A DNA stretch of 64,000 nucleotides from Deltaproteobacteria bacterium (GTDB lineage Bacteria > Myxococcota_A > UBA9042 > DTJE01): the NCBI GenBank assembly GCA_029547805.1, contig JAKPOP010000006.1, positions 1 to 64,000 on the forward strand, read 5' to 3'. Under the pieces are notes generated by a model. The model made no database searches and had not been told where the DNA came from. It saw only the letters and a program-made list of their open reading frames with translations. Each line of letters opens with the position of its first letter. The first letter of the stretch is position 1. Position numbers and translations under genes: made by a program. Below are positions 41,049 to 47,820 of this stretch, one piece after another.

Positions 41049-41819
41049 ATGACCAGGTCCGGATGGTGGATCGGGATCGGAGTGGCGGGGATGCTCGCCT
41101 GCGGGACGGCCGCCGGCCCATCGTTGGACCCGGGTCCGGAAGGCCCCGGATCAGGGGACATCTCGATTCCGGAGGATGCTCCGGCCCCTGGGGACGTCTT
41201 CCGGGATCCGGGTTCCGGGGGCCCCGAGATCCCCGGGGAGGAGAGGGAAGACCCGGGTCTTGATTTCCAGGCGGACGTCCCCGGTGGACCGGATGGTCCG
41301 GCCGAGGACCGGGGATCTGGAAACGACCCTGGCGTGGACTCGTCGGACCCAGGGGTTCCGGATGTCCCTTCCGCCGACGAGGCACCCGATGGACCGCAGG
41401 CGGACCTCCTTGCGGACCCCGGAAACGACGCGCCCGAGGACTCGGGAGGCGGGCCGGCGGAGACGCTGGAACCCTGGACCCAGTGCCGGGAGGACGCTGA
41501 GTGCCAGGCCGTCTTCGGGCCCCAGGCCTGGTGCAACCACGACTTTCCCGGAGGACAGTGCGCCGGATGCGACCCCTACGACCTGGGCCACGAGCGCTGC
41601 ACGCTGCTGGGGCGGTCGGGACTGACCCTGTCGTGCAAGGAGACCGTCCCGAACGTCTGTCTCTTCGACTGTCCCTGCCCCTCGTGGCTCCGGTGCGCCG
41701 ACCTCGGGGACCTCCAGGTCTGCGTGCTCAAGACCTGTCGTGAGGACACGGAGTGCAAGCCGCTGGTGTGCCGCCCCCTGTCCGAGGGGGGCACCTCCTA
41801 CTGCCTGGCTCCGCGCTGA
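41049..41819 (+). CDS. Lipoprotein with acidic linker and small Cys-rich domain
   Basis: Predicted lipoprotein of 256 residues; 'GMLACG' makes Cys18 the anchor. Residues about 20-140 are an Asp/Pro/Gly/Glu-rich linker without structure. The last 110 residues hold a small Cys-rich domain with paired cysteines ('WTQCREDAECQAV', 'GQCAGCDPYDLGHERC', 'CLFDCPCPSWLRC', 'KTCREDTECKPLVC'). The phrase 'CREDxEC' appears twice. This Cys pattern is typical of myxobacterial surface proteins; no function is known. It has a good upstream ribosome binding site (AAGGGGGGAG) and its own promoter. Confidence 0.78.
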   Translation: MTRSGWWIGIGVAGMLACGTAAGPSLDPGPEGPGSGDISIPEDAPAPGDVFRDPGSGGPEIPGEEREDPGLDFQADVPGGPDGPAEDRGSGNDPGVDSSDPGVPDVPSADEAPDGPQADLLADPGNDAPEDSGGGPAETLEPWTQCREDAECQAVFGPQAWCNHDFPGGQCAGCDPYDLGHERCTLLGRSGLTLSCKETVPNVCLFDCPCPSWLRCADLGDLQVCVLKTCREDTECKPLVCRPLSEGGTSYCLAPR

Positions 41820-41826
41820 CCCCGGT

Positions 41827-42456
41827 TCAGAGGGATCGCAGGAAGGCCAGCGAGGCCTCCACGGCCTCCTGCAGGCAGGCATCGTGGGATCGCCCGGAGT
41901 TCCGGGGCGGCTGGAAGGAGTGATCCCCCAGGGTGATCCAGTGCCAGCGGACGGCCGGGGAGAGGGGCAGGGCCTCCACCTCCTCCCGGGACCCGTAGGG
42001 GTCCCGCTCCCCCTGGACGATCAGGGCGGGGGTCTCCAGGGCCTGGAGGTGTTCGATGCGCAGTCGGTCCGGCCGCCCCGGGGCGTGGAACGGATAGCCG
42101 AGGCACAGCAGTCCCCGGACCCGGGCCGCATCGGCCACCAGGCTCGCGATCCGCCCGCCCATCGACTTGCCGCCGATGATCAGGCGTTCCGGCGGGCCCA
42201 GTTCGTCAATGACCGCCAGCCAGGTCTCCCGGAGCACCGGCAGCGGGTCCGGGGGGCGCCGAATCCCGTCCAGTCGCTGGCGGGCCATGTAGGGGAACTC
42301 GAACCGGGCGACCGTGAGGCCGCCGGCGGCGATGCCCCCGGCGATGGCCTCCAGGAACGGGGAATCGACGGGGTTTCCGGCGCCGTGGGTCAGGATGACG
42401 ACCCGAGGGGCATCCCGGGGACCGTCGAACCGGATCTCAGGACGGGGTGTGGTCAT
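41827..42456 (-). CDS. Small alpha/beta hydrolase (KANL3/Tex30-like)
   Basis: Protein of 209 residues with a catalytic triad: nucleophile Ser in 'IGGKSMGGRIAS', acid in 'QGERDPYGS' and His in 'LGDHSFQ'. 'LTHGAGNPVDSPF' is the oxyanion strand, all typical of the KANL3/Tex30 hydrolase-like family. The substrate is unknown. The ATG at 42456 has AGGAGA upstream. It follows the EutL-EutT gene by 48 bases on the same strand, so it may be the last gene of the eut operon, though a link is not proven. Confidence 0.78.
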   Translation of the reverse strand: MTTPRPEIRFDGPRDAPRVVILTHGAGNPVDSPFLEAIAGGIAAGGLTVARFEFPYMARQRLDGIRRPPDPLPVLRETWLAVIDELGPPERLIIGGKSMGGRIASLVADAARVRGLLCLGYPFHAPGRPDRLRIEHLQALETPALIVQGERDPYGSREEVEALPLSPAVRWHWITLGDHSFQPPRNSGRSHDACLQEAVEASLAFLRSL

Positions 42457-42504
42457 CGGGTCCGGTCTCCTGGAGACGGGTTGTCCGGGGCCCACCGGGA
42501 GGGG

Positions 42505-43818
42505 TCATGACGCCGGTCCCCTACGACGGGACTCCGCCAGCGCCACAGCCCGGCAGACCAGCACGTAGAGGGCATTCGAGAGGCGGTTCAGGCCGTGCAG
42601 AAGTTCCCGGCGGGCCTCCGGGGAGAGGTGGGACTCGCCCTGGGCAAAGGCGTCGTGGGCCACGATCTCCACCTGCCGACAGGAGGCCCGGAGGAGGTTC
42701 AGTTTCACGACGGTCCGGCCCATCGAGGCCCTGGGCAGCACCCACCCCACGTTCAGGAAGCGGGAGGTCTGATGGGACATCCGGTGCAGTTCCTCGGGGT
42801 CGAAGCCGGCGATCACCGGCCGAGGCATGGGCCTTCCGGCCACCTCGGCGGCCATCACCTTCCGCAGGTATTCGAGGACGTCGTCCAGGTCCCGGACCAG
42901 ACCATCCATCCCTTCGTCCATCGCGGCGATCTGGGCGTCCAGCACGTGGGCCTGCAACAGGTCCAGGGCCCCCCGGAACCGGATCACCGGGTGCCCCTTG
43001 GGGACCAGGGACTGGTTGTCGAAGAGGTGGGTGTAGCCGTCGGGCTTCGATTCGAGCCCCACGTCGTTTTCCAGCAACCGATAGGGCGCATCCTCCCGGT
43101 CTCCTCGGGGCTTCTCTCTGCGATTCGCCAGACGGCTCCAGACCTCCTCCAGGCCCTGGGACGGTTCCAGGCGCCGGGGCTGCCGGGCCAGGTCCAGCAC
43201 GGTCTCCTGGAAGGCCCGGGCGGCGGCCTCGACCGCCTCGATGGTCCCGGTCAGCAGGCCTCCAGCGAAGTTGGTCTCGCTGGGGGGGGCGTAGAAGGTC
43301 CGCAGGGTCACCTCGGCGGCCTTGAGCGCCGCATCCAGGCCCATCGTCGCCTCCAGCGGCGGGGCGATGAGGTAGGCCATCGGGGTCCCGGGATCCACGC
43401 CGGCCACCCGGGCCAGGTAGCGTCCCACGGCCGGGATCACGTGCGGGAAGAAGGCCAGGCGTCCATCCTCGTCGGCGCTGTAGAACCAGGCCTTCCGGTC
43501 CAGGTACCGCAGGCAGGCCGCGATCCCGCTGGCCACCGTCTCCGGGTCCCGGGCCGCCAGCACGCCAATGACCTCCCCCGACAGGGGACCCGAGGCGTGG
43601 GAGGCCCCGGCATAGAAGGACCTGGCATAGACCACGTCCACCTCGGCGGCCTTGGTCGCCTCGTCGAGGCTCGCATAGAGGGCATCGTCGCTGGTGCAGG
43701 TCAGCAGCCCGAGGCTCTGGTGCTCCGGCGCCAGCCGCAGGTCCCGATGGAGGTCCGGTGCCACCTGGGGAATCGTCCGGAGGGCCAGCACCCGGGGTTT
43801 GATGGGCATTCCGATCAT
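42505..43818 (-). CDS. Fusion of microcompartment shell protein EutL and adenosyltransferase EutT
   Basis: Protein of 437 residues joining two ethanolamine-utilisation functions. Residues 4-216 match EutL closely (tandem BMC domain; 'EATKAAEVDVVYARSFYAGA', 'GTPMAYLIAPPLEA', 'PPSETNF'). Residues about 256-430 match the EutT core ('HLFDNQSLVPKGHPVIRFRG', 'DPEELHRMSHQTSRFL', 'GRTVVKLNLLRASC', 'LNRLSNALYVL'). A linker of about 40 charged residues joins them. EutT makes adenosylcobalamin, the cofactor of EutBC. The N-terminal metal motif of known EutT (HX11CCX2C) is absent; no cysteine lies between 103 and 379. It follows eutC by 21 bases. Either start, 43818 or the in-frame ATG at 43809, is possible. 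Confidence 0.85.
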   Translation of the reverse strand: MIGMPIKPRVLALRTIPQVAPDLHRDLRLAPEHQSLGLLTCTSDDALYASLDEATKAAEVDVVYARSFYAGASHASGPLSGEVIGVLAARDPETVASGIAACLRYLDRKAWFYSADEDGRLAFFPHVIPAVGRYLARVAGVDPGTPMAYLIAPPLEATMGLDAALKAAEVTLRTFYAPPSETNFAGGLLTGTIEAVEAAARAFQETVLDLARQPRRLEPSQGLEEVWSRLANRREKPRGDREDAPYRLLENDVGLESKPDGYTHLFDNQSLVPKGHPVIRFRGALDLLQAHVLDAQIAAMDEGMDGLVRDLDDVLEYLRKVMAAEVAGRPMPRPVIAGFDPEELHRMSHQTSRFLNVGWVLPRASMGRTVVKLNLLRASCRQVEIVAHDAFAQGESHLSPEARRELLHGLNRLSNALYVLVCRAVALAESRRRGPAS

Positions 43819-43839: not shown

Positions 43840-44733
43840 CTAGGAGACCTCGACCCCGGTCCGCTTCTCCCGGAGTGCCCGGAGCACCGTTTCGGCCACC
43901 TGGACGGCGGCCTCGGCCGGCGGAAGCCCACCGGCGTGGATGTTGCTGATCACGGTCCGCATCGCCTCGTTGAACTGGCGGACCTTCATGTAGGTCACAT
44001 AGGCGCCCATCGACTCGGCGGTCTTCAGGCCCGGCCTCTCCCCCACCAGCAGGCACAGGACCTCGGCCCCGGTCAGGCGCGCCACCTCGTCAGCGACCAC
44101 CACCCGGCCCAGGGACACCACGAAGGGGGTCCCGAGCCGGACACCGGCCCGACTCAAGATCGTGGTCAGGGGCGGCACCAGCAGCGGCAGGTTGGTGTTC
44201 AGGGCCTGGGCCGACAGGCCGTCCACCGCGACGATCTGCACCTGGGGACCTCGGATGCCTTGCTTCTGTACGACCTCCCGAGAGGCGTCGGAGAGGCGTC
44301 GCCCCAGGTCCGGCCGCCGGAGGAACGTGGCCCGGTCCTTCGCCGCCGACTGGAGGGACACGAGGCCCAGGGAGGCCGCCACCTGGGGGTCCACGGTGGA
44401 GGCCACGGCATCCCGGGCCGCCGCGTGGTCCTCCTGGAACCGCAGAATGGTGTCGGTGCGGTATCGGACCCCGGCCGAACCGACCCCCAGGCGGGCCGGG
44501 GTCCTGGCCAGGTAGAAGTCCCGGCCCCCCCGGGGCTGCCAGCGACCCAGGATGGGAGGCGGGGGCAGCGGGGCTCCCATCCACAGGGCTGCCCGCTTCG
44601 CCAGCGTGACGTCCTCCGGCGCCGCCGGCCGGGGCGCGGGACGGGACGGTTCCGCTGTCGCGGGGTCTTCCCGGCCCCCCAGCGTGCGGACCACCGCCGC
44701 CCGGATCACCTCCCGCAGTTCCCGCTCGTCCAT
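43840..44733 (-). CDS. eutC: Ethanolamine ammonia-lyase small subunit
   Basis: Small subunit of the adenosylcobalamin-dependent enzyme that splits ethanolamine into acetaldehyde and ammonia. The 297 residues have the family's N-terminal 'GVGSAGVRYRTDTILRFQEDHAAARDAV', 'DGLSAQALNTNL' and 'GERPGLKTAESMGAY', which contact the cofactor. A Pro/Ala-rich stretch (about 22-40) links a helical N-terminus to the core, as in other EutC. The gene lies 10 bases after eutB and 21 before the EutL-EutT fusion, so these form one operon. Confidence 0.95.
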   Translation of the reverse strand: MDERELREVIRAAVVRTLGGREDPATAEPSRPAPRPAAPEDVTLAKRAALWMGAPLPPPPILGRWQPRGGRDFYLARTPARLGVGSAGVRYRTDTILRFQEDHAAARDAVASTVDPQVAASLGLVSLQSAAKDRATFLRRPDLGRRLSDASREVVQKQGIRGPQVQIVAVDGLSAQALNTNLPLLVPPLTTILSRAGVRLGTPFVVSLGRVVVADEVARLTGAEVLCLLVGERPGLKTAESMGAYVTYMKVRQFNEAMRTVISNIHAGGLPPAEAAVQVAETVLRALREKRTGVEVS

Positions 44734-44743
44734 TCCGTGCCCC

Positions 44744-46105
44744 TCACAGGAAGACGCGAATGTCCCCCGCCAGGGAGGTCAACCGACCGTCCTGCATCAG
44801 CCCCATCCGCTCCATCCAGGCCTCGAACTCCGGAGTCGGCCGCAGCCCCAGCAACTGCCGGATCGCCGCGTTGTCGTGGAACGACGTGGACTGGTAGTTG
44901 AGCATCACGTCGTCCCCCATCGGGAGCCCCATGAAGAAGTTGGCCCCCGCCGTCGCCATCAGGATGGCCAGGTTTTCCAGGTCGTTCTGGTCCGCCTCCA
45001 TGTGGTTCGTGTAGCAGACATCGATGCCCATCGGCAGGCCGTGCAGTTTCCCCATGAAGTGGTCTTCCAGACCCGCCCGGGCGACCTGCTTCCCATCGAA
45101 GAGATACTCGGGACCGATGAACCCCACCACGGTGTTCACCATGTAGGGACGGTAGTGCCGTGCCAGGCCGTAGCACCGGGCCTCCATCACCACCTGATCG
45201 GATCCGTGGTGCCCCCCGCTGGAGAGTTCCGACCCCTGTCCCGTCTCGAAGTACATGCGGTGGGGGCCCGCGGAGGTCCCCTTCTCGGCGATCATCGCCG
45301 CCGCCTCGTCCAGGATGGCCCGGTTGATCCCGAAGGCCCGGCAGGACACCTCGGACCCCGCGAGACTCTGGAACATCACGTCCATCGGGCAGCCTCGGCG
45401 CAGGGCCTCCATCTGCGTGGTGACGTGGGCCAGGCAGCAGTGCTGCGTGGGAATGCCGCGCGAGCGGGTGAAGTCGTGCAGCGTCTCGAGGATCGCCCGG
45501 GTCGCCTCCACGGTGTCGGTGACGGGGTTCACCCCGATCAGGGCGTCCCCGGACCCCCAGGCGAGCCCTTCCATGGTCGAGGCCAGGATGCCGTCGGGGT
45601 CGTCGGTGGTGTGGTTCGGCTGGAGGCGCACCGAGTGCCTCCCGGGGAGTCCCAGCGTGGCGTTGGCGTGGGTCACGACCCGGATCTTCGCCGCGGCGGT
45701 CACCAGGTCCAGGTTCGTCATCAATTTCGCCACGGCGGCAATGACCTCGCTGGGGAGACCCCGGCCGAGTGCCAGCAGGTCCGCCCCGGTGGTGGCCGCC
45801 GACAGGATGTGCTCCCGCAACTGGGCCACGGTCCAGTCCCGGACGGACCCGAAGACCCCCTCGTCCAGGTCGTCCTGGATCACCCGGGTGACCTCGTCCT
45901 GTTCGTAGGGAACCGCGGGGTGTTCCCGGATGTCCCGGAGGCGCATCTCGGCCAGGACCTGTCGGGCGGCCACTCGCTCGGTATCGTTCGCCGCGGCGAT
46001 TCCCGCCAGTTCATCCCCGGACTTTCGTTCGTTGGCCTTCGCCAGGACCTCCCGGATCTCCCGGAAGGTGAAGTGGCGGCCCCGAACCTGCGTGGTCCAA
46101 CTCAT
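44744..46105 (-). CDS. eutB: Ethanolamine ammonia-lyase large subunit
   Basis: Catalytic subunit of ethanolamine ammonia-lyase. From ATG at 46105 it is 453 residues, the same length as E. coli EutB, and matches it along its length ('KANERKSGDELAGIAAAN', 'DALIGVNPVTDTVEA', 'YFETGQGSELS', 'VGFIGPEYLFDG', 'MGLPMGDDVMLNYQ'). The start has no ribosome binding site; a candidate promoter ends 7 bases upstream, so the message may be leaderless. It heads a minus-strand operon with eutC, the EutL-EutT fusion and probably the hydrolase. No eutA reactivase or eutE/eutG is in the window. Confidence 0.96.
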   Translation of the reverse strand: MSWTTQVRGRHFTFREIREVLAKANERKSGDELAGIAAANDTERVAARQVLAEMRLRDIREHPAVPYEQDEVTRVIQDDLDEGVFGSVRDWTVAQLREHILSAATTGADLLALGRGLPSEVIAAVAKLMTNLDLVTAAAKIRVVTHANATLGLPGRHSVRLQPNHTTDDPDGILASTMEGLAWGSGDALIGVNPVTDTVEATRAILETLHDFTRSRGIPTQHCCLAHVTTQMEALRRGCPMDVMFQSLAGSEVSCRAFGINRAILDEAAAMIAEKGTSAGPHRMYFETGQGSELSSGGHHGSDQVVMEARCYGLARHYRPYMVNTVVGFIGPEYLFDGKQVARAGLEDHFMGKLHGLPMGIDVCYTNHMEADQNDLENLAILMATAGANFFMGLPMGDDVMLNYQSTSFHDNAAIRQLLGLRPTPEFEAWMERMGLMQDGRLTSLAGDIRVFL

Positions 46106-46260: not shown

Positions 46261-47820
46261 ATGTTTTCGATGCCTCGGATCCAGGAGGGCGTTTCCAGGT
46301 CCTCGGACCAGTCGCTGGAGTTCCTGGCCGATGCGGCGCTGGTGTTGGGGAACCACGCCTTGACCCGCCAGGACATCCACGCGTCGGTCGCCCAGATGCT
46401 CCGGGACCACCTGGAGGGTGGCTTTGTCGTCTTCTCCTCCTTTCGCCGGGAACGCGGCGCCCTCCAGGTGGAGTGCGTCGCCGGGGCGGGGGAAGGGCTC
46501 TCGGAGGCCATCCGCCTGTTCCAGACCTCGTGTCCCGGGGGCATGCTCCCGATTCCAGAGAAATTCCCCTGGAGGACGGTCTCTCTCCCGGTGCTGATGC
46601 CAATGCCCGGGGGCCTGTTCGAACTGACCTTCGGCGCCCTCGATCAGGAGAAGGCCCGGCTGCTGGAGACCCGGATGGGCATCTCCCACTGCTGGCTGCT
46701 GGGCCTCGGGCGGGGTTCCCAGTTTCTGGGAACCCTGGCGTTGCTCCTGGGGCCGGGGCAACCCGCGCCGGACCACCGGGTGGTGGAGACCTTTGGCACG
46801 CTGGTGACCCTCACGCTGCTGGCCCGCAGGGCCATTGGACCCCGGGAGGGGTTCGGGCAGGGGAACAAGACCGGAGCGAAACCCGAGGAACCGAACGCCG
46901 GGATCCTGGCCCGGCGGGTGCTGGAGGACCAGGTGGAGGCCATCTGCCGCTACGACACGGCGGGCCGCCTGATGTTCGTGAACGACCCGTTCTGTCGCCT
47001 GTTTCACCATCGGCCCGAGGAACTGCTGGGGCAGCCGGCGATGGGACTGGTCCATTCCCGGGATCGGCGTCGGCGGCGCCGTCACCTGGCGGCGTTGACG
47101 CCGGAGGCCCCGGTCGGGGAGATCGAGCACCGGGTGGTTCGCGGGGACGGGACCATCGCCTGGATCCAGTGGGTGGACCGGGCCATCTTCGACCGGGAAG
47201 GCCGGGTGGTGGAATACCAGTCCGTGGGGCGGGACGTCACCCTTCGTCGCCAGGCAGAGGAGCGGATGGCCTGGCTGGCGACCCACGACTCCCTGACCGG
47301 GCTCCCCAACCGGGTGCTCCTGAAGGACCGCCTGTCCCTCATGATTCATCGGAGCGGTCGGAGCGGCAGGCCCTTCGCGGTGGCGCTGCTGGACCTGGAC
47401 GGATTCAAGGAGGTCAACGATCGCCACGGCCACGCGGCGGGGGACGAGGTCCTGCGGGCCCTGGGGGGCCTCCTGGCCCGCACGTTCCGGAGGTCGGACA
47501 CGGTGGCCCGCCTCGGGGGCGACGAGTTCGTCGTGCTGGTCGGGGACTGCGGCAATGGTGGGGGCCGTCCTCCCTGGCTGGAGAAACTTGAGCGGTGTCT
47601 CGCGAGCCCCCTGGACCTGGAGCGTCCCCGGGTGACCGTCACGGTAGGGGCCAGCGTCGGGGTCGTGGTCGCCTGCGGCCACGACGCGGACCCCGACGTC
47701 CTGCTGCACCAGGCCGACCGGGCGATGTACGCGGCCAAGAGGGCCGGCAAGGGACGGGCCGTGTTCTTCGACGAGGCGGCCCTGGCCCCGGACGACGACG
47801 AGGGGTCGGGGACCGCATGA
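46261..47820 (+). CDS. Diguanylate cyclase with GAF-like and PAS sensory domains
   Basis: Makes the second messenger c-di-GMP. The 519-residue protein has an N-terminal GAF-like region (about 15-195), a PAS domain (about 225-335, 'CRYDTAGRLMFVNDPFCRLF') and a GGDEF domain (about 340-505). The catalytic GGDEF itself lies at 420-424, so it should be active. An RxxD inhibitory site ('RRSD') stands five residues upstream, as needed for product feedback. No membrane segment is seen. The gene is divergent from eutB and overlaps thiD by four bases. With the HD-GYP and PilZ genes it shows c-di-GMP signalling in this organism. Confidence 0.92.
   Translation: MFSMPRIQEGVSRSSDQSLEFLADAALVLGNHALTRQDIHASVAQMLRDHLEGGFVVFSSFRRERGALQVECVAGAGEGLSEAIRLFQTSCPGGMLPIPEKFPWRTVSLPVLMPMPGGLFELTFGALDQEKARLLETRMGISHCWLLGLGRGSQFLGTLALLLGPGQPAPDHRVVETFGTLVTLTLLARRAIGPREGFGQGNKTGAKPEEPNAGILARRVLEDQVEAICRYDTAGRLMFVNDPFCRLFHHRPEELLGQPAMGLVHSRDRRRRRRHLAALTPEAPVGEIEHRVVRGDGTIAWIQWVDRAIFDREGRVVEYQSVGRDVTLRRQAEERMAWLATHDSLTGLPNRVLLKDRLSLMIHRSGRSGRPFAVALLDLDGFKEVNDRHGHAAGDEVLRALGGLLARTFRRSDTVARLGGDEFVVLVGDCGNGGGRPPWLEKLERCLASPLDLERPRVTVTVGASVGVVVACGHDADPDVLLHQADRAMYAAKRAGKGRAVFFDEAALAPDDDEGSGTA

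What the first reader, a model, noticed from the sequence alone, without database searches (positions are those of the whole stretch)
42505..43818. EutL shell protein fused to EutT adenosyltransferase
One 437-residue protein carries a full EutL (residues 4-216) and a EutT core (about 256-430). In known eut operons these are separate proteins. A fusion would tie cofactor synthesis to a BMC shell trimer, or put it next to EutBC without a shell. I do not know a description of this protein; that is from memory only.
Basis: partly seen in the sequence, partly recalled or inferred. Interest (0 to 1): 0.8.

Follow-up and report, generated by a model that had tools for sequence, protein, structure and literature searches.

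The report
Shell tile fused to vitamin-B12 enzyme
A group of mostly uncultured Myxococcota makes one protein that is both a wall tile (EutL) of a protein organelle and the enzyme core (EutT) that finishes vitamin B12, so the cofactor for breaking down ethanolamine is probably made at the organelle wall; I found no description of this join.

Summary
Window 42505-43818 (-) is one 437-aa frame: complete EutL (residues 5-215, above the NCBIfam EutL cut-off), a poorly conserved ~40-aa linker and an EutT/PduO-type cob(I)alamin adenosyltransferase core (about 257-430) with its catalytic motifs. It is not an assembly error: the join recurs in 22 of 379 Myxococcota genomes from seven families (21 in one frame, one split by contig ends), and both halves are under purifying selection. 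About 73 other Myxococcota genomes have unfused EutL; all seven Bacillota loci flagged as possible fusions proved to be separate, adjacent eutL and eutT genes.

Every fusion genome encodes BMC vertex proteins and 20 of 22 a BMC hexamer; this genome has a Haliangium ochraceum (HO)-type shell with aldehyde dehydrogenase, scattered over several loci. eutB-eutC-eutL::T is a satellite 'EUT module', a known kind (Sutter 2021); the fused EutT is the new part. It lacks EutT's N-terminal domain, which is homologous to the shell-binding EutQ N-terminus, so a docking domain seems to have been exchanged for the tile itself.

Best reading: EutT tethered to an EutL trimer supplies adenosylcobalamin to EutBC at the wall of an HO-type BMC. 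Activity, shell incorporation and sidedness are untested.

The parts
42505..43818 (-). eutL::eutT fusion gene, 437 aa
   Evidence: Single open frame; EutL and adenosyltransferase profile hits
43174..43806 (-). EutL domain, residues 5-215 (tandem permuted BMC shell tile)
   Evidence: TIGR04502 307.5 bits; nearest solved structure C. perfringens EutL 4edi
43051..43173 (-). Linker, residues 216-256: variable first part, then a YRLLENxxxLxxKP segment like the one before the core of some clostridial EutTs
   Evidence: pLDDT <50 at 220-223 and 232-240; window vs L011 30% identity in linker against 81% and 70% in the domains; clostridial EutTs L131, L136, L137
42529..43050 (-). EutT/PduO-type cob(I)alamin adenosyltransferase core, residues 257-430, motifs R377xxxR381xxE384 and N411RLS
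   Evidence: PF01923 53.3 bits; Foldseek match to human MMAB with ATP and AdoCbl, 6d5x; motif shared with own PduO and E. coli EutT
43840..44733 (-). eutC, ethanolamine ammonia-lyase small subunit
   Evidence: PF05985 248.9 bits, NF003971 255.3 bits over cut-off
44674..44733 (-). EutC N-terminal helix MDERELREVIRAAVVRTLGG, resembles the Salmonella EutC 1-19 shell-targeting peptide
   Evidence: Sequence compared with MDQKQIEEIVRSVMASMGQ; hydrophobic moment not above shuffles in the window copy, so weak
44744..46105 (-). eutB, ethanolamine ammonia-lyase large subunit (ORF runs to 46141; start probably at the ATG ending 46105, as in L010)
   Evidence: PF06751 679 bits, NF011649 654 bits over cut-off
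41827..42495 (-). alpha/beta hydrolase, 9 bases downstream; beside the fusion in the two genomes of this genus but not in L011 or L012, probably not part of the system
   Evidence: PF20408 238 bits

Best explanation
The protein is a natural fusion of a microcompartment shell tile with the enzyme that makes the cofactor of the encapsulated lyase. Shown: one frame; intact EutL; adenosyltransferase core with conserved motifs; operon with eutBC; conservation and purifying selection; presence of an HO-type shell with an acylating-type aldehyde dehydrogenase elsewhere in the genome. Inferred: EutL forms its usual trimer and sits in the facets of the HO-type BMC as the extra tile of an 'EUT module'; three EutT domains hang on short linkers at one face and convert cob(I)alamin plus ATP to adenosylcobalamin next to EutBC; acetaldehyde made by EutBC is handed to the aldehyde dehydrogenase inside. 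A PduS-like reductase beside a PduT-like tile elsewhere in the genome could supply reduced corrinoid. The fusion replaced EutT's N-terminal EutQ-like domain: instead of binding the shell, EutT became part of it.
For: Domain hits; the fusion in 22 Myxococcota genomes; purifying selection on both halves; all 22 fusion genomes have BMC-P and 20 of 22 BMC-H; own shell proteins are closest among solved structures to H. ochraceum HO-5815, HO-5816 and its BMC-P, with an acylating-type AldDH (NF011927, 634 bits) in the same locus; in G021 an unfused eutBCL lies about 4 kb from a main BMC locus; EutT motifs conserved and fold matches MMAB with AdoCbl; standalone EutT N-terminus homologous to EutQ N-terminus (hhalign probability 96.4), which links cargo to EutL/EutM in Salmonella (PMC12487888), and absent from the fusion; EutL has been crystallised with cobalamin (Thompson 2014, title only).
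Against: No test of activity, trimer or shell incorporation. pTM 0.53: placement of the two domains is unknown, so the side of the shell on which EutT lies is unknown. EutA (reactivase), listed for EUT modules by Sutter 2021, is absent here. G009 and G332 show no BMC-H (fragmented genomes). The EutC targeting-helix resemblance is weak in the window copy. The genome also has a stand-alone PduO-type adenosyltransferase, so EutT is not strictly needed for AdoCbl.
Confidence: 0.6

Rival explanations
1. Fusion of convenience: two neighbouring genes were joined, both domains keep their old jobs, and the covalent link adds only fixed stoichiometry or co-expression, with no special function at the shell.
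For: eutL and eutT are direct neighbours in many clostridial operons, so a small deletion suffices; linker is poorly conserved; domain placement undetermined.
Against: EutT was found only in fused form in Myxococcota sampled, across seven families, with a long history; loss of the EutQ-like domain fits a change of attachment.
Confidence: 0.25
2. The protein works outside a shell: a cytosolic trimer that gathers EutT and EutBC.
For: No BMC-H or BMC-P gene in the eut operon itself; two fusion genomes without a BMC-H hit.
Against: BMC-P in 22 of 22 and BMC-H in 20 of 22 fusion genomes; own genome has a complete HO-type set.
Confidence: 0.08
3. The C-terminal half is no longer an enzyme but a corrinoid-binding sensor or chaperone that gates the EutL pore.
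For: EutT-model score is below its full-length cut-off; a separate PduO-type enzyme exists.
Against: RxxxRxxE and NR(L/I)S motifs are kept in the aligned fusions, except NILS in L096 and L097, with purifying selection.
Confidence: 0.07

Closest known systems
EutL (TIGR04502) shell proteins of EUT BMCs
   Same: Full-length domain, 51% identity over the Foldseek alignment with C. perfringens EutL 4edi; D45, E181, T182, N183 conserved
   Different: Carries a C-terminal enzyme; the EutLs in the PDB and in the Bacillota and E. coli operons examined here are separate proteins
EutT, clostridial/Listeria-type without the CCxxC metal motif (Costa and Escalante-Semerena 2018, title only)
   Same: Core, active-site motifs and the KPxxxTHL entry segment; no metal motif
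   Different: EutQ-like N-terminal domain missing; fused behind EutL
Satellite 'EUT modules' of HO, SPU3 and SPU6 BMCs (Sutter et al. 2021, PMC8217296)
   Same: eutB, eutC and an EutL-type tile at a locus distant from the main HO-type BMC locus
   Different: No EutA found; EutT is present and fused to the tile; the paper's main text does not mention EutT
Haliangium ochraceum BMC
   Same: Shell proteins of the genome are closest to HO-5815, HO-5816 and HO BMC-P; two BMC-P next to an aldolase as a satellite
   Different: Shell genes spread over at least five loci; aldolase is class II (PF00596); an EUT module is added

Membership tests
EutL (TIGR04502) | Score over the equivalog cut-off across the full model | tested here: met
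   307.5 bits vs 300, model 2-212 of 214
EutL (TIGR04502) | Trimeric tile with gated central pore | not testable with these tools
   Monomer model matches EutL crystal structures (TMt 0.93); trimer not modelled
EutT (NF011595) | Score over the equivalog cut-off | tested here: not met
   97.1 bits vs 226; matches model 88-250 of 267, the N-terminal third is missing
Cobalamin adenosyltransferase, PduO/EutT fold (PF01923) | Score over gathering cut-off and catalytic motifs RxxxRxxE, NRLS | tested here: met
   53.3 bits vs 24; motifs aligned with own PduO and E. coli EutT; structural match to 6d5x
Cobalamin adenosyltransferase, PduO/EutT fold (PF01923) | Enzyme activity | not testable with these tools
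   Needs assay
Satellite EUT module of an HO-type BMC (Sutter 2021) | eutB and eutC with an EutL-type tile, away from the main locus | tested here: met
   Operon on contig C3; main shell locus on C23
Satellite EUT module of an HO-type BMC (Sutter 2021) | EutA present | tested here: not met
   Only a 55-residue hit below cut-off in G000; no full-length EutA in 37 Myxococcota genomes, fused or not
HO-type BMC | HO-like BMC-H, BMC-T and BMC-P, with AldDH, in the same genome | tested here: met

The most novel reading that the evidence does not exclude
A symmetry-matched, pore-coupled cofactor factory: three EutT domains pair into the trimer usual for PduO-type adenosyltransferases over the threefold pore of the EutL trimer, so that corrinoid passing or binding the pore is adenosylated as it enters the organelle. 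This would explain why EutL was crystallised with cobalamin and would be a natural shell tile with a catalytic function.
Probability: 0.2. Interest if true: 0.82.

Novelty: new variant of a known kind. Interest (0 to 1): 0.56.

Why it matters
It is a natural covalent link between a BMC shell tile and an enzyme, conserved over several families. It gives independent (gene-fusion) support for a working link between EutL and corrinoid metabolism, so far hinted at by a crystal structure of EutL with cobalamin, and makes the question where AdoCbl is made relative to the shell directly testable. It also gives the enigmatic HO-type BMC a concrete substrate route (ethanolamine) with dedicated cofactor supply, and offers engineers a naturally evolved way to fix an enzyme to a shell tile.

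Tried and rejected
(1) A Bacillota survey seemed to show seven more fusions, because the search tool reads through stops and reports one 'open frame'; fetching the loci showed separate, adjacent eutL and eutT genes, so this was rejected. (2) Sequencing or assembly error: rejected by 21 single-frame copies in separate genomes and purifying selection. (3) The fused EutLs as one strict clade was rejected with G352 left outside (p-AU 0.006); with G352, a likely loss, included it is not rejected (p-AU 0.274), and fused EutTs group together (90/75), so one ancient fusion with losses is compatible but two origins are not excluded. (4) A cobalamin riboswitch near the operon: none; the only Rfam hit in the window is a tRNA. 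(5) The EutC encapsulation helix by hydrophobic moment: not above shuffles in the window copy; kept only as a resemblance. (7) Thompson 2014/2015 papers on EutL are not held, so cobalamin and ethanolamine binding rest on titles and memory. (8) No multimer prediction was possible.

Full report
OBSERVATION. The frame 42505-43818 (-) encodes 437 aa without interruption. Residues 5-215 match EutL over the whole model (TIGR04502 307.5 bits, cut-off 300); residues 260-422 match the cobalamin adenosyltransferase family (PF01923 53.3 bits, cut-off 24), and the best NCBIfam model there is EutT (E 8.7e-28, model positions 88-250 of 267, below its full-length cut-off).

SETTING. The operon is eutB (44744-46105), eutC (43840-44733), eutL::T, with gaps of 10 and 21 bases; a hydrolase follows in this genus but not beside the fusion in L011 and L012. 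No shell gene other than eutL is in the operon, but the genome (G000, 4.08 Mb in 32 contigs) has BMC-H, further BMC-T and seven BMC-P elsewhere. The main locus on C23 reads BMC-T (CcmP/HO-5816-like), BMC-H, BMC-P, acylating-type aldehyde dehydrogenase, BMC-T (PduT-like). The nearest solved structures are H. ochraceum shell proteins: HO-5816 (E 3.8e-94), HO-5815 (E 2.6e-47), HO BMC-P (E 1.3e-32); the second BMC-T is nearest to PduT-type tiles. Two BMC-P beside a class II aldolase (L062) resemble the type I HO satellite of Sutter 2021, and an RnfC/PduS-like protein sits beside a PduT-like tile (L046). A stand-alone PduO-type enzyme is on C10.

DISTRIBUTION. All 13 genomes of the window's own family sampled carry the fusion (relatives 61-90% identical), as do two genomes of family f9. 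A survey of 379 Myxococcota genomes found it in one frame in 21 genomes (f1, f9, f29, f36, f55, f58); a 22nd, G216 (f49), has the two halves at two contig ends with the frames open to the edges. About 73 genomes have EutL without EutT. Among 53 relatives a EutT-specific profile hit only fusion genomes, so there EutT occurs only fused. In a sample of 398 Bacillota genomes, those with EutL typically also have EutT, but separate; the seven loci that the tool listed as one frame are adjacent separate genes. E. coli K-12 has them far apart in the operon.

ORIGIN. EutL of Myxococcota forms one group against Bacillota (100/98). Fused EutLs lie in two groups, the second next to unfused ones; holding fused EutLs plus G352 together is not rejected (p-AU 0.274), and fused EutTs are one clade against 14 separate ones (90/75). 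One ancient fusion followed by loss of EutT in the unfused lineages and in G352 is the simplest reading; two origins are not excluded. The gene order eutL-eutT of Clostridia offers the obvious precursor.

WHAT WAS LOST. Stand-alone EutTs begin with a domain of about 45 residues, ITExELR...LTPxA...gIkI. Profile comparison shows it is homologous to the N-terminus of EutQ (hhalign probability 96.4; controls: EutQ C-terminal domain 4.0, fusion linker 1.0). In Salmonella that EutQ region joins cargo to the shell at the EutL/EutM interface (PMC12487888). The fusion lacks it but keeps the following YRxLxxGxxLxxKPxxxTHL segment seen in clostridial EutTs L131, L136, L137. So a domain that probably docks EutT on the shell was exchanged for the tile itself. 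That EutT's own N-terminus docks is inference from homology. The E. coli CCxxC metal motif is also absent, as in the clostridial EutTs aligned.

ENZYME. The motifs RxxxRxxE and NRLS align between the fusion, E. coli EutT and this genome's PduO; L096 and L097 read NILS. AlphaFold gives block pLDDT mostly above 90 in both domains, below 50 in parts of the linker, pTM 0.53. Foldseek finds C. perfringens EutL (E 4.1e-26) and, for the second domain, human MMAB with ATP and AdoCbl (6d5x, E 7.8e-5, probability 1.00). dN/dS is about 0.12 for EutL and 0.16 for EutT.

MECHANISM (inferred). EutL trimers carrying three EutT domains sit in an HO-type shell; EutT makes AdoCbl for EutBC; acetaldehyde goes to the AldDH. 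EutC begins with a helix like the Salmonella EutC 1-19 targeting peptide (MDERELREVIRAAVVRTLGG vs MDQKQIEEIVRSVMASMGQ), but its amphipathicity is not above shuffles in the window copy. Both EutL and PduO-type adenosyltransferases are trimers (established knowledge), so threefold pairing over the pore is possible; not tested. A tagged EutL (EutL-mCherry) was used as a shell marker in Salmonella, so a fused partner is plausible. EutA is missing in fused and unfused Myxococcota alike, so its absence does not explain the fusion.

KNOWN OR NEW. Satellite EUT modules with EutL in HO, SPU3 and SPU6 genomes were described by Sutter et al. 2021. The EutL::EutT fusion is not mentioned in that paper's main text (EutT: 0 occurrences); of the seven held papers that contain EutL, EutT and 'fusion', none has such a fusion in its title or the start of its abstract. 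Supplementary files could not be read. I therefore call it a new variant of a known kind.

Noticed in passing
L147:2288-4561 (G267 C101:72787-75060); similar frames in G323 C98 and G352 C14: A single-chain EutB-EutC-like protein of about 757 aa with an apparent Tat/lipoprotein leader (SLRRRSFLAAMLGGAAAATLPACS), besides the canonical EutB; would be an exported ethanolamine ammonia-lyase-like protein.
   Followed up: partly
L064:8340-8960 (G000 C9, about 41340-41960): Protein with an EutQ/EutT-like N-terminal domain (by eye) followed by an ACT domain, between a BMC-P gene and a DUF711 gene.
   Followed up: partly
L101:8254-9156 (G352 C85): EutC-like N-terminal helix joined directly to EutL, with the rest of EutC and EutT gone: apparent remnant of the module, in a family whose other members have the fusion.
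   Followed up: partly
L063:8739-9702 (G000 C29): Three BMC-P genes in tandem; the genome has seven BMC-P genes in four places.
   Followed up: no
L046:7459-9338 (G000 C4): PduS/RnfC-like protein beside a PduT-like BMC-T, just upstream of ribosomal protein genes.
   Followed up: partly
L148:5094-6455 (G113 C8): In the second fusion group eutB can lie on another contig than eutC-eutL::T.
   Followed up: partly
window 46261-47820 (+): PAS-GGDEF diguanylate cyclase divergent from eutB; position shared with the same-genus relative L010.
   Followed up: no
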